Of a stretch of 64,000 nt of DNA, positions 21,238-61,000 are shown piece after piece. The stretch's first letter is position 1, and every line of letters starts with the position of its first letter. The notes under the pieces are model-generated. The model did not search any database. It saw only the letters and a list, made by a program, of their open reading frames with translations, and was not told where the DNA came from. Source of the DNA: Strigops habroptila. Its lineage: Eukaryota > Chordata > Aves > Psittaciformes > Psittacidae. The DNA is taken from contig NC_046358.1 in the NCBI RefSeq assembly GCF_004027225.2, positions 7,347,284 to 7,411,283 of the forward strand. Direction: 5' to 3'. The translations under genes were made by a program, and so were the position numbers.

Positions 21238-21291
21238 AAAGGCAGATTTCCACTTTAGAGTTCATGTCCTCCTCCTTCCCGTGAAAATAAT
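21238..21291 (+). other. 5' UTR part of the sulfotransferase first coding exon
   Basis: The segment lies between the 3' splice site at 21237 and the chosen ATG at 21292. An in-frame TAG at 21256-21258 shows that translation cannot begin upstream in this exon, which supports ATG 21292 and implies further upstream noncoding exon(s). Confidence 0.55.
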
Positions 21292-21385
21292 ATGAACCAG
21301 AAGGTGTTAATTTTCCTTCTCCCAAATTTTATTTTTGGGATATTTCTTTTTGGCTTTTTTTGTAAGAGGCAAAAAAACCTAACAG
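21292..21385 (+). CDS. Carbohydrate sulfotransferase (CHST8/9-like), first coding exon
   Basis: This short exon encodes residues 1-31 and the first base of codon 32. It starts MNQK, a tiny cytosolic tail with one lysine. About 19 strongly hydrophobic residues follow (roughly 5-23, rich in Phe, Leu and Ile), then a basic CKRQKN segment. That is the expected plan of a type II Golgi signal anchor. The ATG has A at -3 and an in-frame stop lies upstream. The donor is a perfect GTGAGT at 21386, leaving phase 1. The next exon begins with GT at 21840, so the split codon becomes GGT (Gly) and the frame continues. The exon is too short to stand out as a reading frame; it was recognised from phase, splice signals and the expected anchor. 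Alternative N-termini from other upstream exons cannot be excluded. Confidence 0.75.
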
Positions 21386-21839
21386 GTGAGTAAAGAATTT
21401 ACCAACAAGAAGACTGAATGTATTCTAGAACCAGGGGTACCTTTCCCAAACATTTTAGAAAGTAACTATGGAGCCTAAGTGGTAAACAATGTTGTGAAAA
21501 CATCCAAGGCCCTGCCACTGTGATAGCTAGCTTAGCAGTATATGAGAGGAAGAGCACTACAAAGGGCCAGTTGACATTAGAAGTGTCAGAACATCAATTT
21601 TGCTTAAAGTAACACTGCTAACATGTTGAAAGTTTTCATTTTAACAGACTTTTCGCTAAGCAGGATAGTTTACTGTGTGTTTGCCATGGTGGAGTCTGGT
21701 GACAGTAAACAAAAAATGGATTTTAGCATCTTCATTAGTTTTTGTATGCAGGATGATAGAATGAGTGCTATGATTGTCACAAAGAGATTTAAATAAGTCT
21801 ATTTCACACTGATGGTTTCAAGTTCTTTCTTGGTTGCAG
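21386..21839 (+). other. Intron of the sulfotransferase gene (phase 1, 454 bp)
   Basis: Bounded by GTGAGT at 21386 and TTGGTTGCAG ending at 21839. The reading frame of the catalytic exon stays open back to an ATG at 21812 inside this intron. That ATG is judged false, because the acceptor is strong and the upstream exon supplies the membrane anchor in matching phase. Confidence 0.7.
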
Positions 21840-22690
21840 GTGGTTTTCCTGATCCCGCTGAAGACTGGCTGGCAATTCAGAATGATCGCAAAAGCACACT
21901 GGCTTCTGTCTGTCTGAAGAACAGTCTCCTCAAATTAAGAAGCAAATTGGATTCTCAGGTTGCAAGCCAGCTCTTTGTGGAGCACAGACATAAATTTATC
22001 TACTGTGAGGTGCCCAAGGTAGGCTGCTCCAACTGGAAGAGAACTATTTTTCTTCTCCAAGCAGACTTAAATGCTGAAGCTTCTGAAATTGAGCATGACC
22101 ACATCCACCAAACCTCGGTGATCAAGAGGCTGGTGGCTTACCCTCCTGCCATGCAAAAACAATTTCTGAACAATTACACCAAAGTGATGTTCACCAGACA
22201 TCCCTTTGAACGGCTGGTTTCAGCTTACAGAGACAAACTTCTGCACTCTGAGCCATTCTACAGTGGCACTGTTGCTGATGAGATTAAGGCAATGTTCAGG
22301 AAAAACAAAAATTCGTCTGGAAAAGTGAGTTTCCAGGAGTTTGTCAATTTCATTGTAGCAAAACCACCAAATAGTCTTGACATTCACTGGAAACCGATGT
22401 TTCTGCTCTGTGATCCTTGCAACATTCACTATGATATTCTGGGTAAGTACGAAACTCTTAGGTTAGATTCTGAGCATGTTCTGGAGGCCATTGGAGCACC
22501 AAAGAGCCTGCACTTCCCCGACTTGAAGAGGTATGGCTCGGAGAAACGAACTAATGGTGATATCACTTTGGAGTACCTCAGACAGTTGAACTCAGAACAA
22601 ATTGAGAAGATCAAAAAATTGTATCAAATGGATTTTTTCTTATTCAACTATACTATGGAATATGAGGATTATTTTTCCCTGAATGACTAA
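21840..22690 (+). CDS. Golgi carbohydrate sulfotransferase, CHST8/9/11-14 family, catalytic exon
   Basis: This exon encodes residues 32-314 of a predicted 314-residue type II enzyme and stops at TAA 22688-22690. Family members move sulfate from PAPS to GalNAc or related sugars on glycoproteins or chondroitin/dermatan in the Golgi lumen. The 5'-phosphosulfate-binding motif PKVGCSNWKR lies at about residues 90-99. The 3'-phosphate-binding motif RHPFERLVSAYRDKL lies at about 151-165. The family signature HW...LC.PC.IHYD..GKYETL follows at about 214-238, and the C-terminal FNYT segment near 299-302. N-glycosylation sequons occur at about 143, 189 and 300. YCEVPK.GCSNWKR is closer to CHST8/CHST9 than to CHST11-14 (VPKVACTNWKR). 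At 314 residues it is shorter than those enzymes (about 340-440) because the stem is short. All core motifs are intact and no frameshift is seen. Exact orthology and substrate cannot be set from sequence, so no symbol is given. Confidence 0.93.
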
Positions 22691-25968: not shown

Positions 25969-25974
25969 AATAAA
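25969..25974 (+). terminator. Candidate polyadenylation signal AATAAA
   Basis: AATAAA on the + strand about 3.3 kb after the sulfotransferase stop, followed within 60-90 bases by T-rich sequence. It could end a long 3' UTR, but the same hexamer occurs by chance elsewhere in AT-rich DNA. Confidence 0.2.
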
Positions 25975-33685: not shown

Positions 33686-36064
33686 TCATAGAATCATAGA
33701 ATCATAGAATCGTAAGGGTTGGAAAGGACCTTAAGATCATCTAGTTCCAACCCCCCTGCCATGGGCAGGGACACCTTGCCCTAAACCATGTGGCTCAAGG
33801 CTCTGTCCAACCTGGCCTTGAACACCGCCAGGGATGGAGCATCCACAACCTCCCTGGGCAACCCATTCCAGTGCTTCACCACCCTCACTGTAAAGAACTT
33901 CTTCCTTATATCTAATCTAAACTTCCTCTGTTTAAGTTTGAACCCATTACCCCTTGTCCTACCACTACAGTCCCTAAGGAAGAGTCCCTCCCCAGCATCC
34001 TTGTAGACCCCCTTCAGATACTGGAAGGCTGCTATGAGGTCACCACGCAGCCTCCTCTTCTCCAGGCTGAACAGCCCCAACTTTCTCAGCCTGTCTTCAT
34101 ATGGAAGGTGCTCCAGCCCTCTTATCATCCTCGTGGCCCTCCTCTGGACTCGCTCCAACAGCTCCATGTCCTTTTTATGTTGAGGACACCAGAACTGTAC
34201 GCAGTACTCCAAGTGGGGTCTCACAAGAGCAGAGTAGAGGGGCAGGATCACCTCCTTCGACCTGCTGGCCACGCTTCTTTTGATGCAGCCCAGGATACGG
34301 TTGGCTTTCTGGGCTGCAAGCGCACACTGCCGGCTCATGTTAAGCTTCTCGTCAACCAACACCCCCAAGTCCTTTTCTGCAGGGCTGCTCTGAATCTCTT
34401 CTCTGCCCAGCCTGTAGCAGTGCCTGGGGTTGCCCCGACCCAGATGTAGGACCTTGCACTTGGCTTGGTTAAACTTCATAAGGTTGGCATCGGCCCACCT
34501 CACAAGCGTGTCAAGGTCCCTCTGGATGGCATCCCTTCCCTCCAGCGTATCAACCGAACCACACAGCTTGGTGTCGTCGGCAAACTTGCTGAGGGCGCAC
34601 TCAATCCCACTGTCCATGTCACCGACAAAGATGTTGAACAGGACCGGTCCCAACACCGATCCCTGAGGGACACCACTCGTTACAGGTTTCCAACTGGACA
34701 TCGAGCCGTTTACCACAACTCTTTGCGTGCGGCCATCGAGCCAGTTTTTTATCCACCGAGTGGTCCATCTATCAAATTGATGTCTCTCCAGTTTAGAGAC
34801 AAGGATGTCATGTGGGACAGTGTCGAATGCTTTGCACAAGTCCAGGTAGATGACATCAACTGCTCTGCCGCTGTCCATCAGTTCCGTGGCTCCATCATAG
34901 AAGGCCACCAAATTGGTCAGGCAGGATTTCCCCTTAGTGAAGCCATGTTGGCTGTCACCAACCACCTCGTTGTTTTTCATGTGCCTTAGCATGTTTTCCA
35001 GGAGAAACTGTTCCAAGATTTTGCCAGGCACAGAGGTGAGACTGACTGGTCTGTAGTTCCCCGGGTCTTCCACCTTCCGCTTCTTGAAAATGGGGGTTAT
35101 ATTACCCTTCTTCCAGTCATCGGGAACTTCACCTGACTGCCAGGATTTTTCGAATATGATGGACAGTGGCTTAGCAACTTCATTCGCCAGCTCCTTCAGG
35201 ACCCGTGGATGGATTTCATCAGGTCCCATGGACTTGTGCACGTTCAGGTTCTTAAGATGGTCTCGAACCTGATCCTCTCCTACAGTGGGCCTAAGGTCTT
35301 CGTTCTCACAGTCCCTGCATTTGCTTTCCAAGACTTGGGTTGTGTGGTCAGAGCATTTGCTGGTGAAGACTGAGGCAAAGAAGTCATTAAGAACCTCAGC
35401 CTTCTCCAAATCCATGGTAGCCAGTTCTCCTGATAGCTTCTGGAGAGGGCCTACATTGTCCCTAGCCTGTCTTTTATTTGCTACATATCTATAGAATCCT
35501 TTCCTGTTATCTTTTACATCCCTTGCCAAACTTAATTCTAGCTGGGCCTTAGCTTTCCTAACCTGGTCCCTAGCTTCTCGGGCAATGTTCCTGTATTCTT
35601 CCCAGGCCGCCTGTCCTCGCTTCCACCTTCTATAAGCTTCTTTTTTCCCTCTAAGTTTCCTCAGCAGCTCCTTGTCCATCCATGGAGGTCTCCTGGCCCT
35701 CCTGCTGCACTTTCTTCTAGTCGGGATGCAACACTCTTGAGCACGTAGCAGGTGATCCTTGAATACCAACCAGCAGTCTTGGGCCCCCCTGCCCTCTAGG
35801 ACTGTATCCCATGAAACCTTACTAAGGAGGTTCCTGAAGAGGCCAAAGTCTGCTTTCTTGAAGTCCAGGGCAGTGAGCTTGCTGCACGCTCTTCTCACCG
35901 TCCTGAGGATCTCAAACTCAACCATCTCGTGATCACTAGAGCCAAGGCTGCCCTGGAGCGTTACATTTCCAACCAGTCCCTCCCTGTTGGTGAGCACAAG
36001 GTCCAGCATGGCACCTCTCCTCGTCGGCTCCTCTACTGCTTGAAAGAGGAAGTTGTCTTCCAAG
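33686..36064 (-). mobile_element. Young CR1 LINE, 5'-truncated, RT frame intact
   Basis: A 2.38-kb CR1 copy on the minus strand. Its 3' tail of three ATTCTATG-type units lies at about 33686-33711, with a short 3' UTR up to 33780. Above that is an uninterrupted ORF2 segment to 36063, where the copy is truncated inside the endonuclease domain. Its 5' edge abuts the tail of another CR1 (36065-36795). The 33686-35529 part is nearly identical to 45737-47578 in inverted orientation. An intact frame and low divergence indicate recent insertion, but without the endonuclease N-terminus and 5' UTR it cannot move by itself. Confidence 0.95.
33781..36063 (-). CDS. CR1 ORF2 polyprotein, partial (endonuclease end plus reverse transcriptase)
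   Basis: About 760 codons with no stop or frameshift. The first ~50 residues are the C-terminal end of the APE-type endonuclease, ending in the conserved SDH (about 43-45). The reverse transcriptase follows: [10 protein letters not shown] (about 335-344), [11 protein letters not shown] (about 406-416), [10 protein letters not shown] (about 464-473) and the catalytic FADD (about 494-497). A C-terminal region contains [15 protein letters not shown] and a final [13 protein letters not shown] block. Full CR1 ORF2 is longer, so 150-200 or more N-terminal residues are missing. There is no true start codon; the frame simply begins at the truncation point. It is retrotransposon protein rather than a host gene. 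Confidence 0.92.
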
Positions 36065-43079: not shown

Positions 43080-43921
43080 TTACATTCCGGGTGAGGAGGG
43101 GGAGCCGACCAGGTACCTGCCGCGGTGGGGGGTGTTATCTGCTGGTATTCGTTCAGCCGCGGGGGGGTCGGGTATCTCGGCAACCTGGGGCTTAAGGCGC
43201 CCTGATCCCGCACGGCTCAGGCGGCGAAGCGCTGACTGAGGGAAACCCGGGCTTTGCGGGAGGCCGCTCTGTCCCGCAGCCTCACAACACGCGGGGGACG
43301 AGGCGGGAGGCCACACACTGACCCCCCTGAGGGGGCCTGACGGGAGGTCGCCCAAACCCGCCCCTCACCTCCCTCAGCGGGGAGGGGGCTCTGTCGGGCC
43401 GCGCCGCCCCTCCGGCCCGCGGGCGCTGCGCAGCCGCCGTGCCCGCCCCGGGGGAGCCGTGACCCCCGGCCGGGGGCGGCGGGCGACAGGGGAGGTCGCC
43501 GGGGCGGGCGCTGAGGGAAGGCGGGAGGCGGCACCTCAGGCAAAGCGAAACCAAAAGGGCGGAGGCGGCGGCGGGGAAGAGGCGGGCAGGCGGGACGGGG
43601 CTCCCCGCGGCGCGGCTCGCTCCTCCCCTCAGCGCCGAGGCGGAGCGGGGCGGTGGCGAAGGGGTTGATCGTGCCCCTATGGCCCTGGCGCGGGGTCAGC
43701 GGGCACGGTAGCCGCCTCCGGCTGTCGCCGCGGGTGAGTCAGAGCTGCCCAGGGAGGGCGGGCTGGACATGAGCCTCGCCGCCGGGCTCCGAGCAGCGGC
43801 CGGAGGCTGAGCCACAAAGAAGTTTCCCGGGCGGTCGGCGGCGGCGCGGCGCTCCCCCATGCACACCCCCGGCCGCCGGCCCTGGGGCGCTGCCCCTCAG
43901 GCGCCCGGCGCCGACCGCGCC
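43080..43921 (+). promoter_or_regulatory. ITPKA CpG-island promoter and 5' UTR
   Basis: GC-rich, CpG-dense sequence runs from about 43080 through exon 1 to about 44430, with a TATA-less housekeeping-type appearance. Several GC boxes of the GGGGCGG type occur (around 43472, 43501 and 43647), and a perfect AP-1 site TGAGTCA lies at 43735-43741. The start site is probably within the last few hundred bases before the ATG. Long antisense frames here (up to 236 codons at 43739-44449) come from GC composition. Confidence 0.65.
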
Positions 43922-44362
43922 ATGGAGCCCCGCGCGGGGCTGCACAGCAGCCCGGAGCTCACCCGGTCCAAGCGGCTGAGCGTCGGGGAGCTCCGCTCCC
44001 TCTTCGAGGCTCGCTGCGCCGCTGTCGCCGCCGCCGCCGCCCGGCAGCTGCCTGACCCGGCGAAGAGGGGCTGCCGGCCCCCTAACGGGGTGCTGCCGCC
44101 CGTCATCCCCCGGCTCACCGTCACCGCCGAGGAGAGCGAGGAGTCGCAGGGCAGCCCCCAGGCGCAGACGCCGCGCACGGAGGGCGGCTGGCTGAGGACG
44201 GACAGCTCGCTGCACCTGCAGTCCCGACGGCTTTCCACCTCCTCGCTCTCCTCCACCGGCTCCTCGTCCCTCTTGGAGGACTCTGAGGACGACATACTGA
44301 GCGACACAGAGGGCAGGAGCCAGGGCATCGTGCACCTGGAGCACGGCGAGGACAGCAACCAG
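43922..44362 (+). CDS. ITPKA: Inositol-trisphosphate 3-kinase A, first coding exon
   Basis: ITPKA phosphorylates Ins(1,4,5)P3 to Ins(1,3,4,5)P4 and bundles F-actin through its N-terminus in dendritic spines. This exon supplies the non-catalytic N-terminal region. Recognisable ITPKA blocks are SVGELRSLFEARCAAVAAAAA (about residues 20-40, in the actin-binding segment), PVIPRLTVTAEE (about 60-71), RRLSTSSLSSTGSSSLLEDS (about 102-121) and EDDILSD. The exon ends at CAG|GTAGGG (donor 44363) in phase 0, matching the human exon-1 boundary as I recall it. The start at 43922 has a strong Kozak context (GCGCCATGG) and gives 147 codons. An in-frame ATG at 43859 has a weak context and would add 21 residues; the human protein's length here is intermediate. 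The calmodulin-binding and kinase domains lie in later exons not found in this window. Confidence 0.9.
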
Positions 44363-45736
44363 GTAGGGAGTCTTAGGGGGAGTGGGGGGAACGGGACGGT
44401 TTGCCCGCTGGGTGCTCCCGGATGCTCCCGCTTGGAGTGAGGTTTCCATGACCCAACTCCACGCGAACTCCGGGAAACTCCTGCCTTGGGGCCGGCAGCA
44501 GCGTGGTACAGCGTACAGGCTGCTGTGCCCGTTTGAAAGACGCTGCTACACGTTGGCTCTCCTCAAACCCGGCCAGGTGTGCGCTTGTTTCCTTCCTGCT
44601 GTGAAACTGTGCTTGATGTCCCAAGAACACACGGAACGCTTTTTGGTCATAAGCGGGTTCTTTTCTTTCACTTCTTTTATTTTCCAGTCTCCTTTATCAG
44701 ATCTTCAAAATAAAATTTTTCCAGGCATTTACCAGCAGGTATTATTTTTTGTCTCTTTCAGTCCTGGAGTCTGTGGTTGTCAATTTCTGAGCTGCTTCTT
44801 GCTGTGAGCATGACAGGAGAGGGGGAGGAGCTTGGAATGGGTAGAATGCATGCTTTTGTCCGTTCTGGCAGTAACACATTCTTCTCAGTAAATCCCCTCT
44901 GTAATTTGGCAGCTTTCATCCATGAAGTGCACTTTTAAAGGCATATAGTTAGTTGCTTTCTCATGATCTTTAATGTATATTTGCCTGACTCTTTATGGTA
45001 TGCTTCTTGGGGTACAAAGTAGCTGAAATCTGTTGCTGTAGCAAATTCACCCTCCTACCTTTATTGAGACCACAACTTAAATTGTTGTTCTACTGCCAGC
45101 TCACTGGCACAGAATTGTTTTCAAGCAGAGCGTATGTTCTGAAAAAATGTATAAGCAAAAAGTAATGCAACTTGTAGGTGATACCTCCAGCTGGACTTTT
45201 CTCATGGTAATTGTGGGTTTACTACTCTAGAGGACACATAGTACAGGGGCTGAAATGCTGTGCACAGCGTTGGTTTTGTTCGCATCAACTTGTGGCCTGT
45301 TTTTGAAAGAGAGAAAGAAACAAAAGGTTTTGTACTTTGTCATAGTGTATGTCAAGAAACTGATAATAATGCTACTTAATTTGTACTTTTGATCCTGAGA
45401 TAGAATCTGGTGCGTAGGGGAAACGATTACTGTTGTTCTGCTTTCTTTTCTAAAATACATGTTGTGCTAGAGGCGATTTTGTGAAAGCAGCAAAAGAAAA
45501 GAAAAGATGGAAAAGCACTAAGGGTCCTTTGACTCAGTACCCCTGCTATTGCAGTGGGCTGTGTTAATAGGGAACAAGAATTTAGTGATAACACTTTAGC
45601 AATAGGGAGAACTCTGAGATGGCATTGTGGCATCTGGTTACCTTGTCTGTGAATAGACTGAAGCAAAACCAATTCTTCACTCAAGAAGCCATGCCGCCTT
45701 TAAGGTTTTGCTTCTGCATATTTGAAGTCATTGATA
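44363..45736 (+). other. ITPKA intron 1, first part
   Basis: Begins at the GTAGGG donor. The CpG island fades by about 44430 and the sequence becomes AT-rich. No exon-like coding segment is recognised before the CR1 insertion. Confidence 0.6.
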
Positions 45737-47485
45737 TTGGCAAGGGATGTAAAAGATAACATGAAAGGATTCTATAGATACGTAGCAAATAAAAGACAGG
45801 CTAGGGACAATGTAGGCCCTCTCCAGAAGCTATCAGGAGAACTGGCTACCATGGATTTGGAGAAGGCTGAGGTTCTTAATGACTTCTTTGCCTCAGTCTT
45901 CACCAGCAAATGCTCTGACCACACAACCCAAGTCTTGGAAAGCAAATGCAGGGACTGTGAGAACGAAGACCTTAGGCCCACTGTAGGAGAGGATCAGGTT
46001 CGAGACCATCTTAAGAACCTGAACGTGCACAAGTCCATGGGACCTGATGAAATCCATCCACGGGTCCTGAAGGAGCTGGCGAATGAAGTTGCTAAGCCAC
46101 TGTCCATCATATTCGAAAAATCCTGGCAGTCAGGTGAAGTTCCCGATGACTGGAAGAAGGGAAATATAACCCCCATTTTCAAGAAGGGGAAGGTGGAAGA
46201 CCCGGGGAACTACAGACCAGTCAGCCTCACCTCTGTGCCTGGCAAAATCTTGGAACAGTTTCTCCTGGAAAACATGCTAAGGCACATGAAAAACAACGAG
46301 GTGGTTGGTGACAGCCAACATGGCTTCACTAAGGGGAAATCCTGCCTGACCAATTTGGTGGCCTTCTATGATGGAGCCACGGAACTGATGGACAGCGGCA
46401 GAGCAGTTGATGTCATCTACCTGGACTTGTGCAAAGCATTCGACACTGTCCCACATGACATCCTTGTCTCTAAACTGGAGAGACATCAATTTGATAGATG
46501 GACCACTCGGTGGATAAAAAACTGGCTCGATGGCCGCACGCAAAGAGTTGTGGTAAACGGCTCGATGTCCAGTTGGAAACCTGTAACGAGTGGTGTCCCT
46601 CAGGGATCGGTGTTGGGACCGGTCCTGTTCAACATCTTTGTCGGTGACATGGACAGTGGGATTGAGTGCGCCCTCAGCAAGTTTGCCGACGACACCAAGC
46701 TGTGTGGTTCGGTTGATACGCTGGAGGGAAGGGATGCCATCCAGAGGGACCTTGACACGCTTGTGAGGTGGGCCGATGCCAACCTTATGAAGTTTAACCA
46801 AGCCAAGTGCAAGGTCCTACATCTGGGTCGGGGCAACCCCAGGCACTGCTACAGGCTGGGCAGAGAAGAGATTCAGAGCAGCCCTGCAGAAAAGGACTTG
46901 GGGGTGTTGGTTGACGAGAAGCTTAACATGAGCCGGCAGTGTGCGCTTGCAGCCCAGAAAGCCAACCGTATCCTGGGCTGCATCAAAAGAAGCGTGGCCA
47001 GCAGGTCGAAGGAGGTGATCCTGCCCCTCTACTCTGCTCTTGTGAGACCCCACTTGGAGTACTGCGTACGGTTCTGGTGTCCTCAACATAAAAAGGACAT
47101 GGAGCTGTTGGAGCGAGTCCAGAGGAGGGCCACGAGGATGATAAGAGGGCTGGAGCACCTTCCATATGAAGACAGGCTGAGAAAGTTGGGGCTGTTCAGC
47201 CTGGAGAAGAGGAGGCTGCGTGGTGACCTCATAGCAGCCTTCCAGTGTCTGAAGGGGGTCTACAAGGATGCTGGGGAGGGACTCTTCCTTAGGGACTGTA
47301 GTGGTAGGACAAGGGGTAATGGGTTCAAACTTAAACAGAGGAAGTTTAGATTAGATATAAGGAAGAAGTTCTTTACAGTGAGGGTGGTGAAGCACTGGAA
47401 TGGGTTGCCCAGGGAGGTTGTGGATGCTCCATCCCTGGCGGTGTTCAAGGCCAGGTTGGACAGAGCCTTGAGCCACATGGTTTAG
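45722..47485 (+). CDS. CR1 ORF2 polyprotein, partial (reverse transcriptase)
   Basis: 587 codons, open throughout. The first five or so codons come from flanking intron DNA and the element frame begins near LARDVKDN. Reverse transcriptase motifs are intact: [11 protein letters not shown] (about 233-243), [10 protein letters not shown] (about 291-300) and FADD (about 321-324), followed by the C-terminal ORF2 block ending SHMV. Compared with the copy at 33781-36063, I count four amino-acid differences over about 580 shared residues (R/M, R/G, Q/R, Y/C). It has no endonuclease domain. This is retrotransposon sequence rather than an ITPKA exon. Confidence 0.9.
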
Positions 47486-47578
47486 GGCAAGGTGTCCCTG
47501 CCCATGGCAGGGGGGTTGGAACTAGATGATCTTAAGGTCCTTTCCAACCCTTACGATTCTATGATTCTATGATTCTAT
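45737..47578 (+). mobile_element. Young CR1 LINE, 5'-truncated, RT frame intact, in ITPKA intron 1
   Basis: A 1.84-kb CR1 on the + strand, in the same sense as ITPKA. It starts at TTGGCAAGGGATG inside ORF2 and runs through the ORF2 stop at 47485, the short 3' UTR, and a tail of about three ATTCTATG-type units ending near 47578. It is the inverted, almost identical counterpart of 33686-35529. The truncation point lies about 190 codons further into ORF2 than that of the other copy. Confidence 0.95.
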
Positions 47579-50500
47579 ATGCAATATTGAGTCCTAAATC
47601 ATTCATTAGAGCTGTATCTTTCCCTGTAGACTGACGCGCATGTGCCTAAAGCATAACTGGATGTGAGTAGTACTTTCTTTTAAGTTACATGAAGTTTCTA
47701 GACACCATAAAGTTGGAAAAGGCTTTGGTCACCTTTTAATTACAAGGAAGTTGTAAAAGTAAAGAGCAATGATTTATATTCAAACTAAAAATAGCTGTGT
47801 TATGTTTTAATGAATAGGACATTCAGCATTTTAGGTGTGTGAGAAATTGAGAACTGTAATAGTATTATGAGAATCCAGTTTTTGGAAAAGCTTTCCCAAG
47901 TTTAGTGCAGGATTTTTTAATGTTTCCTTGGTAAAGTAAGTATTCACTCAAATGGTAGATACTTTGTGTTTTTAAAAGCTGAGTTACTTTTCCATACCTG
48001 CAGTGTAGGGGAAGATGGGGCAAACTGCCTACCAAGAGCCTGCATTCTGACTGTTCTTTATCTCATTACTCTGTGGCAAGTTGGCAAACCAGGGCTGGGA
48101 CTGGTGCCTAGGACTCTAAAACAGCAGAACGAAGTATCACCAACTTTGTGACATTGCTTAATAAATTAAATGGGCCAAATCTTTAATCTGCTTAATGCAT
48201 GCTTATGTAGTTCATCCTCCTTCCCTTGATGCATTAGCCACTGAGAGGTCAAATCCTGGGAATCTGCAGTTTTCTCTGTGGTCAGGCACACTGCCCTTCA
48301 TCTCAGGTGGCTGCACTGTGTGCTTGCTGGTACCTGGAGGTGACCAGGACAGGCTTGTCCTTGTGTTTGATGTCTTTTGGTACCAGGCAATGCTGTGATA
48401 CTAGCAGTCCTTATGTTCAGGCTTTACAGACACTGTTTCTTTGGCGTGTTATGTGCTTACTGCTTCACTACGGTAGGGGCCTGTGCTTTGAATCTCTGGG
48501 GGTTCAACTTTACAGGGTGTGTCCTTTGTACTAATTAATCTCGAGGCAGCATGAATAAGCGTGTTTTAGAACAGAAGCCTTTGGGCTCAAGGCAGGCACA
48601 TAAATGTGAAAATAACTATAAATTTTATGATAACCTGAGGAATGGGTTTATATTTTGAAGATTCTGTTTAGAGACAAATTTTGTTCATATTTGGTGTTTT
48701 TAGTGTCTGTATTTTTAATAGACGAAGGCTTGTTCTCCGAGTGGAACGCATAGGATGAAGACTTTTCTGAAGGAAACTGAAGCCAGAGGTGGGCCAAACT
48801 TGCTGTTTCCTAATCCATGCGAAATTGTGACATTTTAAAATTTCCCTTGTATTGGAATTTCCTTAGACAATTTCTTTGGAAATGTTAGAAATTAATTTGG
48901 AGCCTGGCACCTTATGGCTAAGCTCAGACCAGTGCTCAGAGGACTGCTGGGTCTGGTAGGTAGAGGACTTGACTGGTAGGTCAAGCCTACCAGAATCTCC
49001 AGTGCCGTGCAGGGACCTTGGAAACTTGCCCAGGTCTTCAACTGCGGGAGCAGAAATTCTGATAATGTTCCTGTTATCAGGGCTTCAAGGCTTCCATCTG
49101 CAGGCTCAGGAGCTTGAGACCTAAGCTGAAGAAGGTACTCCCAGGCTTCTCTGCTGGAGGCTTCTTTTTTGTTGACCTGGAAATCAAGACCCTGTTGGGT
49201 CTTTGAAATATTGTGGGTTCTCAAGCTAACTGTGCAGGCCCTTGTGAAACAATGGAGCCCTTCCTCTGTGTACAGGGCTTGCTGCCCTGGAGTTACCAGG
49301 CCTTAAATCCCGGGATGGTAAGCCTGGGAGTGCTGTCTCCAAGTGTGTCCCTTGGAGGATGGTTCTCCCTGGCAGCTCACTAGGCAAACGGAGCTCTCCA
49401 AGAGGAGGAGTGATTCAGTTAAGCATTTCACAGAGCATTTTGAGTTGGATGAATTGGCATATCATGACAACATTACATTTTTGTTTCATTTTGAGAGCAG
49501 TATGTGGGCATGTCCCTGAAGTATAAGGGCCCCTACTGCGGGAGTGAATACCTTGGGACCTATGACTGGTGATTACAGTGGAGTCCCAGCAGGGCCAAAA
49601 CACCGTTCTCATCTAGGCAGACCCACCTTTGAGAGAAGCTCAGTGGGTGGTGTTCCAGTTCCTCAGCACAAGTTCTGCATTTCATTTTGCAGTGATTAAC
49701 AGAGGCTTTGGAAACTGGACTGCCCTGGCTTCCTGGGGGAAGACCCCTCCAGCATGGAAGAGTTGCAAGTGTGAGAGAAGCCTGTTCTGCTGCTGTCCTG
49801 TTAAGCTGAACTTTTGGCTCTGTGAAAACCAATTGCACGTAGCTGTGCTAATGTCTTTGCATAACGCCATAGCTGGAGCTTCACAAATCTTGGCAGTTAA
49901 CTTAATAAAAAAAAAAAAAGGTTGATTTTTTTAATAGCCAATTGACAGAATAGATTTTACCCTGTGACAACAGTTAACATTCTCTTGCCTTCCCTTGCAT
50001 TTAAATGGGAAGCATGCTTTTCTACCCTTGCTTCACGCCATCTGGAAAGTGTATATACACAGTTGAATCTTGCAGTGAAAGTGCCAGTGGTCCATTTATA
50101 GTAATGGAGAGAGTGCAAGAGTTCTATATTTTTGTCTTCATTCTGTGAGTGAGCAATTTTAAGAAATAAGTCTGGTTAGCACCTTCTTTGTTGGGACAGA
50201 GACTTTAAAACATGGTTTTCACAGAGAATAAACACCATGAGAATGTACAGCAGCCTCTTGTCCTCTGCATAGGAGAATGTTATTTACTAGATAGAAACAT
50301 GCCAAATAAATCTACTCGTTCTCATAACTGTGACCTGTCATTCCAAATTCCTAGATCTGTAACCATGAGAACAGCTGACAGCTTGCTAGAGAAAAAGCAG
50401 TTCAGTTCTTACTTGCAATGATACCAGTCCAGAAACTTTGGGGGATAGCTGTTAGTGAAGCTTATTTGGTTTCACTGATGATCTCACCATTATTTTTCAT

Positions 50501-53500
50501 CATACCAAGCACCTTAAAATGGACCAACATATAGAGAGGCACTCACACTTAATAAACACCAACCAAAATTTTCAACTAGTTTGGCTCAGGGGTGGGTTAC
50601 ATAAGCTAATGCAGTAGAATAGAATTGTTATTTTTAAATGAAGAATGGGAATGAAGGGATGACATAAGTAAGACTGTTAATGGGCTTTTAGCCCACTTTC
50701 CAGAGGAAAGAAAGCTTGTGTAATCACTCTATCAATTCTATTTTCACAACTTTAGTAGATTTCAGCCAAATTTGGCAGTGGCATAGACATCTCAAAGTTT
50801 CTTGAAGAACTCTTTAAAGTTCTACAAAGATGAGTCTCTGGGTAGAAGAGAGGAAAACAAAATAAGTGCATACCTTTTCTTCTCAGGGGGAAAAGGTGCA
50901 AGATGAGTTCAGCAGTTGTCTTCTGTTTTGCTTAACTAACAAATTGGCATGTGCATACTGGGTAGTGGACCAGTGCTTGCTGCTTGAGCCAGCCACAGCA
51001 GGTAGTGCCTCTTGTCCTGAGGGTAATTAGGAGAAAGCATGGGAGGGAGCATGCAGAGGGAGCGTGGCTGGTGAGGTTAGGGAATGTGGAAGGCACTAGT
51101 TGAGGGCAGGGAAGGAGGGTGAGGAAATTGCGGGGGGATGTGGAAATGTGAGTGGGATTGAAGGTTTTTTGGCACAAGCTTACAAGGGGACAGTGACAAG
51201 CTGTAGTTACTCTGATAAGGGTGCAGGACAGTAGCTACAAGTCAAGTAGAAACCAGGCTTCATTTTAGTTTGCTGCTCATGGAACTACTACTTTTAATGG
51301 GATACATTTCATGCTTGTAAAAAAGCCACACTGATTTATAATGACAGGCTTGTATACTGGTATCTTTTTCTTGTATATGAACAAACATGAGGTGAACAGC
51401 AGAAGCGTACGTTCCGCACTTCCACATTGCACGGTTATTGGGTCAAAACTCTGAATTGGGAGCCTTCTCTCAGCTGGAGGATGGCTTCTTCACTACTTGT
51501 ATGCTTAAGTGGTGGAGTATATTGAAACATCAGCAGAATCAGTTTCAGGTGCCTATCTCAAAAGGAATAAAAGTAGTGGCTGGAGCAGTAGTTTGGAAAT
51601 TTTGCATGTCTGAATATTTTTGGGTTCTGACACTTTTTACCTGTTAAACTGGTGTGGTGTTCATTTAAAAACATGTTCATCCTTGTGTGGTGGTTAACAT
51701 AGACAAAAATGACCTCTCAACTCACATCTAAGGTTTATTATAAATGAAAGGTGTTAAAGTGAATCAGTTTAATTAAATGCTCACAATGTGGTGCAACTTA
51801 ATACAGCTAATGTTTCTGGAAGCTGAGAATGCACATTATGCTTATGTATTAGATAGCTGTTTTGTTTAGCAGTGATTGAGAGAAGAACTGAGGATCATCG
51901 TACAGCATTTTGTGTGATTATCTACAAAATGTGATGGCAGAAAATGTAATATTATCCTTGCACATCTTGGAAGGAAAAAGTGATCATGTCTTATGTACAG
52001 CACCAGTCAAGTCACTGTTTGTCTCTCTTCTACCTTCTCTGTCAATGTAGTTTTTGCAGAGAAAGGGGGCTGAGGCAGGAAAAATTGGCTTGTCAGTCCA
52101 TCTTGCGTAGCGTAGGTTTAGATTGCATTTTTAAGTGCTCTTCTCAACATTCTCTACCAACAGAGAGAATGTTTTTCTCTAAAAAGCTCACAAGTTGGGC
52201 AAGATGGATTGTCTCTCCATAGCATAGCACACATGAAGAAAAATACCATTAAAAAAAGAAAAAGGTGGGGAGGAGGGAGGGAAAAGAGTTAGTCTCCATC
52301 AACTCATTCTAAACAAAAGCATGGGGAAGGGGAAAGGCTACCTGTTCATCCAGTGTCAGACTAGTAAATACATTGGTATATTGTTTCTAGTGCTTAACTG
52401 ATCCATTCTTATCAGTAATGGAGGATGTTTTCTGGGATAATGCATAGCCAGCAGCATTTGGGTGGGTTTTTGTATCTAGAAACGCTGAACTTCTCACAAG
52501 GAATGAAATTTTCCTTTACATTCCAAAACATGGAAGTGTGAGACTGATGCTATAGAACTTACCCTGAACCAGCAGGCCTGGCTATTATTGCCTGTTATCA
52601 AACCTTCTGTTCCTTGGCAAGCTTGGGAAGAAGTTAGCCAAAGACCAATTGGCAGCTCATTCGAAGCAATATCATAGACCTGGCACAATCCAGATTTAGA
52701 GCCTGGGACAGAATCTCCAAGCCAGTTGATGACTATAGCAAGCATGACACAGATGCTGCTTTGTGGGAGCTTGGCATTAACCCAGAATCCAGGATCACTC
52801 CTTATCTACAGGCTGGAATATCCACGTAAGGTGGTGCAGTGAATGCAAACTCTGAACTGCTTAACCGCAGCCTACCAATATCACCTTTATTTTACTCACA
52901 TTCAGCTGCAATCTGCTACACCTCGTCAGCCTTTTGACCTCATCCATACTTGAGCCATGTTGATAACAGAGGTGCGGATACAGGTGATAAAGAATAGCTT
53001 GCATGTTATGTCTGCATGTAATGAGAACTGAAATGTGTGATTCATCAGTCCACCAAATGATTACCTGTTTTGCAGGAAGCTGGGATGTTGCAGAACTGTG
53101 TGAGTAAGAAAGCTAGTGGCAATGGCACAGTTTACTTATGATGTATCAGAGGAGAATACAAATTGCTGTAGTCTTCATACAATTTTCATATGAATGTCTC
53201 TTGGTAATGTCTCTTGGTAAATTATATTGAACACTGCATAGAAAGAGAATGCCTTTGTTTTCCAGTGATGGTAGGAAATCATCGTTCATTGTCAACGTAG
53301 ATGATTGGCCCCTGGTCTCTGCCTCATCCTGACATAGATGATACAGTCTTAGCTTTAGCTGCCTTCACTACTCTGAGCTGCTACAGAGAACACAGCTTTC
53401 TTTGTGTCTTAGATTTTATTTTTTTCAAGCAGCTCCATACAGTTGAGAACACTGCAGTGGTTCTTCTCAGTGATGTTCACTGTGGACCGCATGTCATTTC

Positions 53501-53611
53501 TCTGCCCTACTTTCTTTGCTTCCTGTGGTGGAGTGCAGAATCAAATATAGGTTACTACTACTCACCTTTGAGGTGATGGCGGTTGTCAGAGGCTGTATGT
53601 AATGCATACAA
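47579..53611 (+). other. ITPKA intron 1, middle part
   Basis: AT-rich with chance frames only. A 13-base A run lies at 49907-49919, and a tandem duplication of ATGTCTCTTGGTA at about 53194-53219. I looked for the conserved second-exon block of ITPKA (HWQKIRTMVNLP-like) and did not see it. Confidence 0.5.
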
Positions 53612-53808
53612 GGAGCTCAGCTGTGAAGGATATGTTCCCATCTCACTCTTCAGACGCATGAGGCAGTTTGAGGAGGCTCAGCTGTGCATGAGACACCAGG
53701 CAGCTGTGACCCAGGTTTGCCCAATACAAGAGGGACATCTCTCACTGGGACTGAAAAGCCTCTCCAAGTACAACACTCCTTTGAGTGCCCTCTTTAGCAC
53801 AGGCATGT
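53612..53808 (+). repeat. 197-bp inverted repeat, left arm
   Basis: This arm is matched in reverse complement by 54866-55062. The arms begin GGAGCTCAGCTGTGAAGG and end AGCACAGGCATGT. By eye they are about 90% identical with small compensating indels. Both arms keep an open frame containing RHQAAVTQVCPIQ and LSALFSTGM, but no known protein is recognised. Identity stops abruptly at both ends, and no target-site duplication is seen. Confidence 0.85.
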
Positions 53809-53834
53809 CTTCATTCTCCTACTGACCAACTTCA

Positions 53835-54133
53835 AAGCTGGAAAGGGACTTTTTACAAGGGAATGTAGTTACAGGACAAGGGGTAGTAGCTTAAAACTGA
53901 AAGAGGGTAGTTTTAGATTGGATATTAGGAAGAAGCTGTTTACTGTGAGGGTGGTGAGACACTGGTACAGGTTGCCCAGAGAAGCTGTGGCTGCCCCATC
54001 CCTGCCAGTGTTCAAGGTTGGATGGGGCTTGGAGCAACCTGGTCCAGTGGAAGGTGTCCCTGCCTGTGGCAGGGGGTTGGAACTGGATGAGCTTTAAGGA
54101 CCCTTCCAACCCAAACCATTCTGTGATTCTATG
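53835..54133 (+). mobile_element. CR1 LINE 3' fragment between the inverted arms
   Basis: About 300 bases on the + strand: the final ORF2 codons (diverged FRLDIRKK block), the 3' UTR with CTTTAAGGACCCTTCCAACC, and a one-to-two-unit ATTCTATG tail. It belongs to the TGGTTTGGGTTGG subfamily and is more diverged than the young copies. It lies 26 bases inside the left arm of the 197-bp inverted repeat. Confidence 0.9.
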
Positions 54134-54865
54134 ACTTCAGAGTATGGGTCTTACCAGCAGAAATGCTGAACACTTGTACCTGCAACCGAAGTTAATGGGA
54201 GCTGTTTTGCAACACTGTTCTACGATATCGTATAACACCAGGTATTAGGAAAAGCAAAAAGTGAAACCTCAGATTGGGATTTCAGAATTAATGGGTACTT
54301 TTCATATTAACCTACATTTCCTGCCATATTTTGCCTGTAAGATATGAGCAAAACAGTTTGTGTAACAGAGATCGTGAAAACAAATTCATTACAATTCATA
54401 AAGCACTCTACTGCAGTGGTGGCTGTCTTAAACTACCACATACAACTTAGTAACTATGTTTATAGTAGATTTCCAGTAAGTGAAGTAAAAATGGTAAAGC
54501 CACTGAGCACAGAATTAAAAAAAAAAAGAGCTGCTTTTTATAGAGTCAGGAATTGTTTGTTTACACTGAATAGGAACCACAATATGTTATTATGTAATTA
54601 AAAACTATATCATAAGCTCTGCAGAAAAGGGTAAGTGTTGCCATAAAGAGGATAACTAACTAAAGTTTGCACCTAAAACTTCAATTCTGAAAATTCTTGA
54701 GTACTCAGTTTTGCATTTGAGACATTAGTAAAGTTCCAGTGCAGACATAATTCTGCATCGGAACAAGTTGCAGTAGTGGAAGGTGCTGACACATGGCAAT
54801 GATGTTTCAACCACCATTTCCAAAGTGTGTGCTACAGAATAAGCCAGAGCTGGGAGGCCCATTTA
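54134..54865 (+). other. ITPKA intron 1, loop of the inverted repeat
   Basis: AT-rich unique-looking sequence between the CR1 fragment and the right arm. An A-run of about 12 bases lies near 54518-54529. No gene or known repeat is recognised. Confidence 0.5.
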
Positions 54866-55062
54866 ACATGCCTGTGCTAAAGAGGGCACTCAGAGGAGTG
54901 CTGTACTTGGAGAGGCTCTTCAAGCCCAGTGAGAGATGGCTGTCTTGTATTGGACAAACCTGGGTCACAGCTGCCTGGTGTCTCATGCGCAGCTGAGCCT
55001 CCTCAAGCTCGCCTTGTGTGTCTGAAGAGTGGGATGGGAACATACCCTTCACAGCTGAGCTC
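54866..55062 (-). repeat. 197-bp inverted repeat, right arm
   Basis: Reverse-complement partner of 53612-53808, about 1.06 kb away. In transcripts of ITPKA intron 1 the two arms could pair into a long imperfect stem enclosing the CR1 fragment. On the minus strand the frame through the arm differs from the left arm by about four residues over 47. Confidence 0.85.
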
Positions 55063-58000
55063 CATCAATCCTTTGTGTGTGCTTGGCCCAGCAGTCTCTA
55101 CAAAAGGTAATTTCTAAAGACTAATGAGCACCTACTGCAAATTAACTTGTTCTTACAGTTTGCCGGATTTGGTCAGGTTGACTTCTGCTCTTCCTGTGGT
55201 CTGCTCCTGCTCTGAAACTCTCCTTTTGCCAAATCTCGGGCTTATTTCTCGAAATTCAAGGTTGAAAAGCTTTTCAGAGGATTCATCAGAAATTTTGTGA
55301 TGGCACCAGTATGTATTTTTTGAGCCTTGGAAACACCTGAAGCTTTGTTGGAATTGTTTGGTCTGAAGCAAAAATGTCCTTCTTTGTGGTGAGTAAATGT
55401 AGAGCAATTCTCAGAAGAATGAGGTACACAGAAACAGAAAGACTTCTTGTGTTTTGGTGGCTGTACAGGAAATCTGGCTTTTGAGACCCTGATCTTCTGA
55501 AAGAGGCAGAGCTAGAGCAGGTCTTAAAAGACCTGCTTTTAGGTCTGTGTATTTTTCTCCACTGCTGTATGCTTATGTGATGCCGTGATAGAAAGGATAA
55601 AAATCTGCATGAACAGTGTTTGCGCAGATCAGCTGTTTGTTATCTTTTGTGAGGTTTGAGTGGGTTGTTGGCTAAGAGCACTTGACCTGAATGTTCTAAT
55701 GATGATAATCTGGGATTGCTGTGGGTTCCCTCCGCAGCCATTCCCACCCATGCATGTTCTGTGGGAACAGCGACGCCGGTTCCACAAAGGGTCAGCTTTG
55801 TTCAGAGACGAATGTAATCTGAAGAAACTAGGAAACCTTCCTACGCTCCAGCTTTCGCTTTTCATAGTGCGAGATGCTGAGTGTCAGAATTTTGGGCTGA
55901 TAATCGGATACAGTTTGTATTGTCTTGCTCTGTGGAATTTAGAAAATTCAGGATTTTTTTGCCTTTGTACTAACCCAGAGGAGTAAGCAGTTAAATCCCC
56001 AGATACTCACTTCAGGGCAGATTGGGCCGTTCTGTTGGAAATCCTATGAGAAGATTTTCAGTGGAGATTCTTGACTTCCAGACTTGCTCTTGCCTATTAC
56101 TTGCTCATGATGCCACCATGGCTACTAAAGGCATTCAGTAGAAAAAATAATGAAGCCGTATTTTAAATATATTAGGAAGAAGTGAGTCTCTGGAGTTCTC
56201 TGGCCTAATGATCTGCATGGATTTGGGCACTAGTCAGGCCCCTGTAACAGTTTCATTACTTGTTTACCCAAAGTTTATAGGAAGACCAAGCAAGAATGTG
56301 TGACTGACTGCCTTCAGCAACGAGATGAGGGTGGGAGGGAGGAAGTCCTGTGCTATCTAATAGCCCTGTGCTTGTTGATCACTACACCAGCAATCTCCAA
56401 GTCTTTCTCCAGCAGTGGGACTGCCAGATGTCCTGAGCATGGTTTCCCATTCCAGTATTAAAATTGGAGTGACAGAAAACTAATGATTTTTTTTCTTTAT
56501 CCCTGTTTATCCATTGGGAGTTTCTAAACTATCTCTAGAAATATGTCCTCTCCCATTGTCATAGTTGTGTGTCTTGGTCCCAGTTTGCCTTTCCAGTCCT
56601 CTGTATAGGCAGCAATCCTGTCTTGGACAGGGATGGCTATAGGATGAATGTAGCCAACTTGACAATTTTCGTTTTACATCGTATTCTTCAAGAAAAAGAG
56701 CAGACAAGGCAGCAAAATCAGTCTTAGCTTGTGAAGTGACTTGTTCCCTTGTGTGTAGTGTAAACCATAAACCACTTGCAAATGATCTCTCAATGCCTGC
56801 CTGCTCTTTGCCTGCTGAGCCCCAGTGTGTTGATGTTGGTCACTCTTGGGTTCTGCTACTGATGCCCAATCTAGCATAGAAGCTGCTGCTTGCTCCATAT
56901 TTAGGGAGGTTGGTGTAGGTGGTTGTGCGGGATATGGGAGTGTGGCTTGCAGTTCTGTTGCTAGGAGCCAACAGTATTAAATTCTTAAGTTTTATGGGGG
57001 CTTTAGTCTCTTTTACTATGAGATAAAAGTTTTGGTAGATAAATGTCTATGTATAAACTACACCCTGTTTATTTTATTTTTAGGTGGGTCTTAATAATTA
57101 GCAATTGACGTTTGTGTTTCCAAAAAGGTGGGATCTCCAGCATCTTGAGTGTAAACACATGTGTTTACCTTCAGGGCAGGGGAAACATACTCTGCACAAC
57201 ACATTCACTATTGTTCAAACACCCACAACTCTTCAGGAAGGCAGATGCCTTGTTTCAGTTTCAGTCTTTCATTGAGTCACTCCTGCTTATGTAAGATCTG
57301 AATTTGACTCTTTCTTAAGGCAACATTATGGAAAGTAAAATCTTAAATAATCCCGTGTCTGCAGGGACTACCTGCTCCTCATACGGAGGAGGAATTCAAC
57401 TTTTATGTTGCTCTGTTATCAGAAATTCTCTTTTGATCTGTAGTTTTGCTCAAGGGAGAAGTCATCTCTTCTCTGGATTCTGTACATAGTTTCTAGTGCT
57501 ACTTGGGGCAGGGAGAGTTTCCCTAATCTAAGGTTTGCTCCAAAACCAAACAACTACCTCATAAGCGAGAAGATCCTCTCCCTCCTATGGGGGAAGGTGA
57601 AGGGTCCCCATTTCTATATAATTCCATATAATTTCTATATAATGATGGTTTCTCCATCATTTCCATATTCCACGGATGGGCCAGGCTCCCATCTTGTCTG
57701 GGACATTGGCCTTACTTGTACTGTTGTGATGCTAACCGAAATAGGACTGTGGTTTTAGTTTGTGTTTTTTGTGTTGTTTTGGTGGTGGTGTTTTGGGGTT
57801 TTTAATCCTTTTGACACAGTGGTTTGGAATAATCTCACAGTTACTATGTTAAAGCTCAGAGTTATTAAAGTGACTGCTGAAGGATGTGGCCTTCCCCTCG
57901 GTAAATACCACACCCCGCTAAATAACAGTGCCTATCGTGTGTTGACACTCACATTCCATTGCACAGGGTGGGCCATATTTGAACAGTGGCATACGTGATA

Positions 58001-61000
58001 GGTGAAGTAGTAACTGCCTATGCTTCTTTAGAGGAAAATGGAGGTGTGAGTTTGGGGGAGACAAAGGAGGAGAGAAGAGATGGAGTACTGGACTTTGTCT
58101 TGAGATAGATGAGGAGAGCAGATGGCAAACTGTTACCAGTGTATGTCTGATCTGGTTTTTACATGAGGTTTTTAGGCTCTAATAATCCGTTTCACTTAAT
58201 GCTATTGCTGCTTATTTGAATACTTGAATGCCTTATTTACATGCCTTTAATTTAGTTTGCAAGCATTAATTACTTGAATTGTTCACTGGTGTTCTGAAGT
58301 GGAGCTATTATAGCCTGCAGTGGTGGGAACAGGAGCAGAGAAAGGGCACGTGTCTGGGCCTAGATCCCATCCTGAAGCAGTGGAGTTTGCTCAAATCTTT
58401 TGTAAATGAGTGTTGGATGTTTTAGGATGTTAGAAGTTGAATTATCATGGTAGGAAAGAAAAAAGTTATGTAAGTACATTTTAAAAATGAAGACCTGTCA
58501 GTAACCTCTTTCTATGTATGTGCATATATACGTGTGTGTACAATAACTTCAGAAACCCTGAATTACAGACAAGTGACTTAAGTTTTTAACTGACTGTTTT
58601 AATACCTTTTAGGAAATGGGAAATAAGGCATGGAAAAGGGATCATGTTCTGTAGGACATAAGAATCTTTAGCTGATACGCTGCGCACACTGATTATGAAC
58701 TATCTTGGTGCCTGTGACTAGAACTCTTTTAAAAGCGTTACAACTCATGGACACTGGGATCAACCCAGTTCTATTGTGGTGGCAGGTGTCCCTTGTGAGT
58801 GAGCGAGACCATGGTTTTACAGGCATTTGTCAAGCCCATTTGAAAACTTATGGATACCCCTGGAAAGCCCTTTTCTGATCTCTCACCTGAATGTTTTGGT
58901 TTTGTTACGCATTAAAGCTATTTACTCCTGTCCTTCCCAATGGACATGAAGAACAATTGACTGCTCTTATAGTTGTGAAAACATGTGTATTCAAGACAGT
59001 TGCCATGCTTGGCCCTCTCAGAATGAATTCTTTCAGCCTCAGCAATACAATCTTTGTTATTCATCCCTGAACTTTCTTCCATTTTGCCAAAACTTTCATG
59101 AAATAGTGACCAAAATGGAGCACAACCATCACAGATAACCAGTGGATTCTTACAGCAACCTGAATTCTATTCTTGTGTTTCCTATCCTTTCCTACAGGAA
59201 AAAATGAATTATAGCGCAATAGCCTTCCACTGTTTGTGTTACTTTCTTTTCAGGCAGGATCTCAAAGTTATAAGGGATTTTGGGGCCCTTACACAAGGAT
59301 ACATTGAAAGCATAGTAAGCTTTTAACACGGCTTTGTTAACCGAAGCTGCTAGGGATAGGAAAAGAGGAATCTTTGACCAGTTAATAGAAGATAGTTTTG
59401 CAATTTCTGTCTGATAGTGGTTTGTGGTGAATGGGGAAGTGTAATAAGGGGCAAGCATTAAAATTTCCTTCATTTCTCTTTATCTGCTCAGGCTGAAGTT
59501 TCTCCTGTGGACACTGAGTCACTGGGGTGTTAAACTGGTGGTGGGCCTAGCCCTGAGCTGCTGGGCTGGCAGGAAAGAGCTTTATGTGTGTCTGCACCAC
59601 CTCAGCAAACAAGATGGGAGCACACCGTCAGCTTCCTTCACAAGTGCCTGGAGTTCACTCAGGGGAGATCAGCTTCTGGAAGTTATTTCCTGGCTTGTGG
59701 CCAGAACACACTCTTCTCTTGATGTTATGCAGAAACTACACCTGATCGAAGTGGATTGGCACTTGTGGTACAGCTGGGTTTGAGGTCATGTGCGGTTCAC
59801 AGATGATGTGTTCGTGCCTTGACAATTGTGCTTCTGTTTTCGGCTCAACCCGTTTATTGGTCTATGCATAGAAAAGTGTGGATGTGTTTGGGATTTAAGT
59901 ATTCCCAAGATTCATCCTGTTTGAAACTGGTAGTTCTGTGTCCTACCTGAGGGAATGTTAGGCTCATTTTTTCATCTAAAGAGTGTTGTCTTTCTAGATG
60001 TCACTTTCTCGTGACTGGTGGTGTCAATCAGTGGCCCATGACAAGTGGAGGATGAATGGAGGATGGGCAGAGAATCTCAATTGCTAAACTGTGGCATAGA
60101 AAGTTTTTGAAGACCCAAACTGCAGTTGTTTTGGAGGTTAAAAAAGATTTCTTTCCTTCTGCCTCACCATCTGCTAAAGTGATGTTTGATTTACCACAAA
60201 AATTTTGTGAGTGATGGACAGCCTGGATAAATCTCAAATGTCTGGGCTCTGTAAGTGACTCAACTTTCCTGTAGTGAGGAACTTTCCATTTACTTCTTGG
60301 ATAATAACATTTCAGTTTCCAGTGAGACTGATGTTCTGGCAGAACCCTGGTAGGGGCAGAACCTCCTTTGGTTAAGTTTTCCTGTGCTCAGCAGGGACAT
60401 AGGGCAGAGCTTCATCCTATTAGAGAACCAGTGTCTTTCAGAGCAGAGCACAGCACAAACTGCAAAGATAGGGATAATGGCCGCGTTTAATGCCTGCTAT
60501 CAAAGATGGACATTTTGGTATTCCTTAAAACAGAAAATGTTGATTTTTACTGAAATAAAATCTGTCTTTCAGTGAACAGTGTTGGCTTTTACAACATCTC
60601 AGTGAGAAAAGAGAAGGAAACCCTTGTGACAGTGCAGCTTTAAAGCTGTTTAATTCCTTGACTATTTTAACTTTTGAGTTAGGAATGACATAAAGGTTGT
60701 AGATATTTCACCAGATAATGGTCAGAAACTAAATGCCAACATTGATTCCTGCAGAACAGTCAGCACACTTGTCATGAACCCAGGACAACACTGCAGCTCT
60801 TGATGGTGTTTGCAGGAAGGCAAGCAATGCTTTCGCTTCTTTGCACTTCATTTTCCTCTGATTTGGAGAGGGACTCCTGGAACTATAGGTAGAATCCAAC
60901 TGTGGAGTGAGACATGGGATTTTGTGCTCCTAGTAAATCAGTCTGATACTGGCTGTGCGTTTCTCTTCACTTCTTCCTTTACTCCAGATGTAGTGAATAT

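What the first reader, a model, noticed from the sequence alone, without database searches (positions are those of the whole stretch)
21238..22690. Intact, short-stem CHST8/9-like sulfotransferase upstream of ITPKA
The catalytic exon has complete PAPS-binding motifs but does not match any one of CHST8, 9, 11, 12, 13 or 14 closely as I recall them. Its membrane anchor sits in a separate 94-base coding piece, found only by matching intron phase (phase 1, Gly codon split G|GT). The total of 314 residues is short for the family. In human, as I recall, the gene next to ITPKA is RTF1, not a sulfotransferase. This may be a sauropsid or bird paralogue lost in mammals, with unknown substrate.
Basis: partly seen in the sequence, partly recalled or inferred. 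Interest (0 to 1): 0.7.

Follow-up and report, generated by a model that had tools for sequence, protein, structure and literature searches.

The report
Intact divergent CHST8/9-like sulfotransferase gene
Next to the kinase gene ITPKA, this vertebrate genome carries an intact two-exon gene for a Golgi-type sugar sulfotransferase related to, but apparently distinct from, human CHST8 and CHST9; it looks like an extra member of a known enzyme family whose sugar target is unknown.

Summary
The donor at 21385 is the only CAG|GTGAGT in the window on either strand. The anchor exon is the only candidate of its kind in 20 kb upstream. ITPKA exon 1 is confirmed 21 kb downstream.

Its pairing with CHST8 or CHST9 alone has p-AU 0.02-0.09; pairing with CHST14 is rejected once bacterial outgroups are added. 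In a second look at Foldseek's candidates, all 50 rows shown for the catalytic-exon model are sulfotransferases.

Most likely it is a Golgi type II sulfotransferase moving sulfate from PAPS to a terminal GalNAc-type sugar. Substrate, expression, host species and presence in other vertebrates are untested. "Lost in mammals" is plausible but not shown. No vertebrate genome could be searched: the genome search was busy at all 14 attempts. It may already be annotated as "CHST9-like" in databases I could not see. New member of a known kind.

The parts
21238..21385 (+). Exon A: 5' UTR (21238-21291, with a 6-codon upstream ORF from ATG 21264) plus coding start 21292-21385 (residues 1-31 and first base of Gly32)
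   Evidence: acceptor ttgttgacag|AAAGG, donor CAG|GTGAGT 9/9, only such 9-mer on either strand of the window; upstream ORF read
21304..21363 (+). Signal anchor, about residues 5-24 (VLIFLLPNFIFGIFLFGFFC)
   Evidence: Kyte-Doolittle 19-residue mean 2.45 at residue 5; maximum beyond residue 40 is 0.41
21386..21839 (+). Phase-1 intron, 454 bases
   Evidence: splice signals; 5 internal-exon candidates in it, all with weak donors (6/9)
21840..22690 (+). Exon B: stem, catalytic domain and stop codon TAA 22688-22690
   Evidence: Sulfotransfer_2 PF03567, E 6.7e-54; 297-codon stop-free run
22010..22042 (+). 5'-PAPS phosphosulfate-binding motif VPKVGCSNWKR (residues 89-99)
   Evidence: pattern shared with recalled human CHST8, 9, 11, 12, 13, 14, not CHST10
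22196..22237 (+). 3'-PAPS phosphate-binding motif RHPFERLVSAYRDK (residues 151-164)
   Evidence: pattern shared with recalled CHST8, 9, 11, 13, 14, not CHST10 or 12; the RHP form is reported for fly family members (PMC5050403, passage)
43904..44362 (+). Neighbouring gene ITPKA, exon 1 (extent of the matches; later exons not found in the window)
   Evidence: phmmer to human ITPKA 9qgk, E 2.1e-31; tblastn with recalled human ITPKA residues 4-163, E 3.9e-36

Best explanation
A functional gene for a Golgi type II membrane sulfotransferase of the HNK-1/CHST8-14 family. A short N-terminal tail and one signal anchor hold the enzyme in the Golgi membrane, and a stem much shorter than in CHST8/9 joins it to a lumenal PAPS-binding catalytic domain. 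The domain moves sulfate from PAPS to a hydroxyl of a sugar, most likely the 4-hydroxyl of a terminal N-acetylgalactosamine, as CHST8 and CHST9 do. It descends from an ancient duplication next to the CHST8/9 split and has evolved fast since. Shown: the reading frame, splice signals, domain and motifs; the predicted fold agrees. Inferred: Golgi location, activity, substrate and age.
Confidence: 0.72

Rival explanations
1. It is simply this species' orthologue of CHST8 or CHST9, moved or fast-evolving, not a separate paralogue.
For: CHST8 and CHST9 are its nearest relatives among the seven compared, and in the outgroup-free tree the pairings with CHST8 or CHST9 are not rejected (p-AU 0.09 each).
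Against: With bacterial outgroups p-AU is 0.020 and 0.023, and 0.024-0.044 in three variants; CHST8+CHST9 form a starred clade without the query in those four trees.
Confidence: 0.1
2. It arose as a local duplicate of CHST14, which lies on 15q15.1 in human like ITPKA.
For: Same human chromosome band region (CHST14 15q15.1, PMC9957132 table passage; ITPKA 15q15, PMC4329558 table passage).
Against: Query+CHST14 is rejected with outgroups (p-AU 0.0044; 0.0032-0.0082), though not without them (0.097). Identity to CHST14 is lower than to CHST8/9 (32% against 37-39%).
Confidence: 0.05
3. It is a recently silenced or untranscribed copy whose frame has not yet decayed.
For: No expression evidence was available; the nearest AATAAA downstream is at 25969, 3.3 kb beyond the stop, with one TATAAA variant at 22942.
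Against: Full-length domain without stops, conserved catalytic motifs despite about 38% identity to its nearest relatives, and good splice sites. Divergence this old with an open frame implies long selection (inference).
Confidence: 0.08

Closest known systems
CHST8 (GalNAc-4-ST1) and CHST9 (GalNAc-4-ST2)
   Same: Same Pfam-type domain region, VPKxGCSNWKR and R.P.ERLVSA.RDK motifs, C-terminal FNY[ST] sequon, hydrophobic N-terminus (human rows recalled)
   Different: 37-39% identity only; about 105-130 fewer residues ahead of the conserved block (query 41 aligns to CHST8 146, query 45 to CHST9 175); RHP instead of REP/RDP; five residues missing before V.F.EF
CHST10 (HNK-1 sulfotransferase)
   Same: Same family; grouping with it is not rejected
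   Different: 28% identity; long branch of its own; its 5' motif does not fit the pattern that the query shares with CHST8 and CHST9
CHST11, 12, 13, 14 (chondroitin/dermatan 4-O-sulfotransferases)
   Same: Family and PAPS sites
   Different: 30-34% identity; pairings with 11, 12 and 13 singly rejected (p-AU 0.0009, 0.013, 0.0009), with 14 rejected only with outgroups; the group of query plus all four rejected (0.0037)
Bacterial Sulfotransfer_2-like proteins (L001-L014)
   Same: Homologous catalytic domain, 21-29% identity
   Different: Match the catalytic region only (query residues from 65-84 on); grouping the query with the six used as outgroup is rejected (p-AU 0.004)
CHST16
   Same: Precedent for an extra carbohydrate sulfotransferase kept in frogs and lost in amniotes (PMC10043435, passages)
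   Different: Belongs to the separate 6-O family

Membership tests
Pfam Sulfotransfer_2 (CHST8-14 type) | Domain match above the curated cut-off over the full profile | tested here: met
   184.1 bits against cut-off 22, profile 2-251 of 252
Pfam Sulfotransfer_2 (CHST8-14 type) | 5'- and 3'-PAPS binding motifs | tested here: met
   VPKVGCSNWKR and RHPFERLVSAYRDK; RHP also in fly members (PMC5050403, passage)
Pfam Sulfotransfer_2 (CHST8-14 type) | PAPS-dependent sulfotransferase fold | tested here: met
Golgi type II carbohydrate sulfotransferase | N-terminal signal anchor and stem | tested here: inconclusive
   One hydrophobic segment predicted in exon A; membrane orientation and Golgi location not testable
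CHST8 or CHST9 orthologue | Falls within the CHST8 or the CHST9 clade | tested here: inconclusive
   Outside both in 5 of 5 trees; p-AU 0.02-0.09 against either pairing; human rows were recalled, one species only
GalNAc-4-O-sulfotransferase (activity) | Sulfates the 4-position of terminal GalNAc | not testable with these tools
   needs an enzyme assay
2R ohnologue of CHST8/9 | Conserved linkage to the paralogon in several vertebrates | not tested
   The genome search not answered at 14 of 14 attempts; only human cytobands from papers

The most novel reading that the evidence does not exclude
A third GalNAc-sulfotransferase-type gene, kept beside ITPKA since the early vertebrate genome duplications and lost from mammals. 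ITPKA and ITPKC are duplicates on human 15q15 and 19q13, and CHST8 also lies at 19q13.11, so this gene could be the 15q-side partner of CHST8 or of the CHST8/9 ancestor. A shortened stem and changed loop would give it a different acceptor, for example on egg, pituitary or mucin glycans of birds or reptiles. The tree puts it outside CHST8+CHST9, so an origin at the first duplication round, or earlier, fits better than a sister of CHST8.
Probability: 0.3. Interest if true: 0.5.

Novelty: new member of a known kind. Interest (0 to 1): 0.36.

Why it matters
If mammals lack it, textbook counts of the family, which are built on human CHST8-14, miss an enzyme that helps shape sulfated glycans in other vertebrates, and mammalian substrates cannot simply be carried over. 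CHST16 shows that such losses happen in sulfotransferases. The finding is directly testable by comparing the ITPKA locus across vertebrates and assaying the lumenal domain.

Tried and rejected
Upstream neighbour: the recalled last 201 residues of human RTF1 gave nothing at E 0.01 and nothing better than E 2.5 in a looser run. No Pfam family was found in six frames of about 1-21.3 kb. Short exons without a domain would be missed, so RTF1 or another gene may still lie there or beyond the window.

Later ITPKA exons: with recalled human ITPKA, only residues 4-163 match well (43904-44362); the best listed match to later residues is E 1.8 (one search printed the 15 best of 89). The PDB search for this stretch used one of three + frames, 43700-58696.

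Solved homologue by sequence: none. phmmer of the 314-residue protein gave E>=0.95 only. A profile of the catalytic exon plus 14 bacterial relatives gave three matches up to E 1: heparan sulfate 3-O-sulfotransferase 5 at 0.24 and 0.4, and a lipase chaperone at 0.46. NCBIfam gave 0 families.

Close relatives in collections: viral contigs gave none with the protein or with alignment A1. Genome contigs gave 14 loci, all titled as bacterial records, and no vertebrate contamination. Rfam gave no match in the window.

Internal exon lengthening the stem: five overlapping candidates in the intron, all with weak sites; considered unlikely.

Printed account of this gene: searches (terms such as 'carbohydrate sulfotransferase 9-like', CHST9L, ITPKA+RTF1+sulfotransferase, CHST8+CHST9+chicken) listed none that I could recognise from title and abstract start. 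One search found one paper, on honeybees (PMC4491870, listing only), holding 'carbohydrate sulfotransferase 8-like'. A genome-wide screen for lost genes does not hold 'sulfotransferase' or 'CHST' in its main text (PMC10416458, find). Only the open-licence PMC library was searched; one search listed 20 of 71 papers. PMC7353957 (the CHST16 paper) was not held.

Full report
What is there. The + strand holds a gene with coding sequence join(21292..21385, 21840..22690): 945 bases, 314 residues and a TAA stop. Exon A begins after the acceptor ttgttgacag at 21238; an in-frame TAG at 21256 precedes the ATG at 21292, so the start cannot lie further upstream in this exon beyond that stop, and no other in-frame ATG lies between (read). 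A short upstream ORF starts at ATG 21264. The donor CAG|GTGAGT matches 9 of 9 consensus positions and occurs once in the 64 kb window, counting both strands.

Is it more than chance. The exon B frame is stop-free for 297 codons, while 200 first-order Markov simulations of the surrounding 20 kb gave a longest run of 218 codons on both strands. The two longer runs in the window (763 and 593 codons) lie in LINE copies (reverse transcriptase match for the second; 1842 bases shared by both at 99.6%). The protein matches Pfam Sulfotransfer_2 with E 6.7e-54 over nearly the whole profile. For the anchor exon I searched for any ATG-open frame with a hydrophobic segment ending in phase 1 at a donor of 8/9 or better. 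The 20 kb upstream gave only 21292-21385. Controls gave nothing on the + strand beyond 22.7 kb and one weaker locus on the - strand of the window.

Neighbours. ITPKA exon 1 lies on the same strand about 21 kb downstream (43904-44362; 9qgk, E 2.1e-31; recalled human ITPKA, E 3.9e-36). No later ITPKA exon was found with the recalled protein, so intron 1 apparently exceeds the remaining 19.6 kb. Upstream, six-frame Pfam scans of about 1-21.3 kb found nothing at E<=1e-3, and a recalled RTF1 C-terminus gave no credible match. A paper names RTF1, NDUFAF1, NUSAP1, LTK, RPAP1 and TYRO3 in its figure of ITPKA neighbours in human, mouse, two frogs and zebrafish and says non-conserved ones are not shown (PMC12283734, passages; the figure itself was not seen).

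Family position. Local identities: CHST9 39%, CHST8 37%, CHST11 34%, CHST14 32%, CHST12 31%, CHST13 30%, CHST10 28%. Without outgroup, query+CHST8+CHST9 has support 81/81, and pairing with CHST8 or CHST9 alone (p-AU 0.09 each), with CHST14 (0.097) or with CHST10 (0.20) is not rejected. With six bacterial outgroups CHST8+CHST9 is starred (98/97), the query sits just outside (81/68), and pairing with CHST8 (0.020), CHST9 (0.023) or CHST14 (0.004) is rejected, but with CHST10 is not (0.246). Dropping the longest bacterial row, also dropping CHST10, or adding 5% random errors to the recalled rows leaves the placement unchanged (82/80, 100/96, 86/85; p-AU 0.024-0.044 against CHST8 or CHST9). So a plain CHST8 or CHST9 orthologue is unlikely but not excluded: branch lengths are large and only one species represents each paralogue.

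Origin. ITPKA, ITPKB and ITPKC lie on human 15q15, 1q42 and 19q13 (PMC4329558, table passages) and are attributed to whole-genome duplication (PMC11000326, passages including part of the abstract). CHST8 lies at 19q13.11 (PMC2709426, passage), CHST9 at 18q11.2 (PMC5603563, passages), CHST14 at 15q15.1 (PMC9957132, table passage). A CHST8/9 relative beside ITPKA is thus where an ohnologue of CHST8 might sit. Against this, 19q13 is a large band; the ITPK paper calls A and C sisters (its sentence is self-contradictory), which would predict query+CHST8, and the tree disfavours that. A CHST gene lost in one vertebrate group has precedent in CHST16, lost in amniotes (PMC10043435, passages).

Limits. 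The gene may already be annotated in public vertebrate databases under a 'CHST9-like' type name; six paper searches did not list it, but they cover open-licence papers only.

Noticed in passing
33688-35529 (-) and 45737-47578 (+): Two LINE copies in inverted orientation, 99.6% identical over 1842 bases, with long open frames of 763 and 593 codons; the 45.7 kb copy matches LINE-1 ORF2 and R2 reverse transcriptases in the PDB. The CR1 type is my recollection, not a tool result. They suggest recent activity or a recent local copy.
   Followed up: partly
22304-22339 (residues 187-198, NKNSSGKVSFQE): This loop resembles an EF-hand calcium loop: weak Pfam EF-hand matches (E 0.006-0.008, below cut-offs) and polcalcin as the best, non-significant PDB hit. 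In the relatives aligned, CHST8, 9 and 11 have five more residues here, so the likeness probably comes from a shortened loop. Asn/Ser stand where Asp is usual; calcium binding was not tested.
   Followed up: partly
44363-64000: Only ITPKA exon 1 was found; no later ITPKA exon was seen in the remaining 19.6 kb with a recalled human protein, implying a long first intron or an assembly feature.
   Followed up: partly
L008, L009, L010: The bacterial frames holding the sulfotransferase match are 560-604 codons here, about twice the domain, so the protein may be fused to a second domain.
   Followed up: no
53612-53808 and 54866-55063: A 198-base segment present twice in inverted orientation, 91% identical, 1.1 kb apart.
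   Followed up: no
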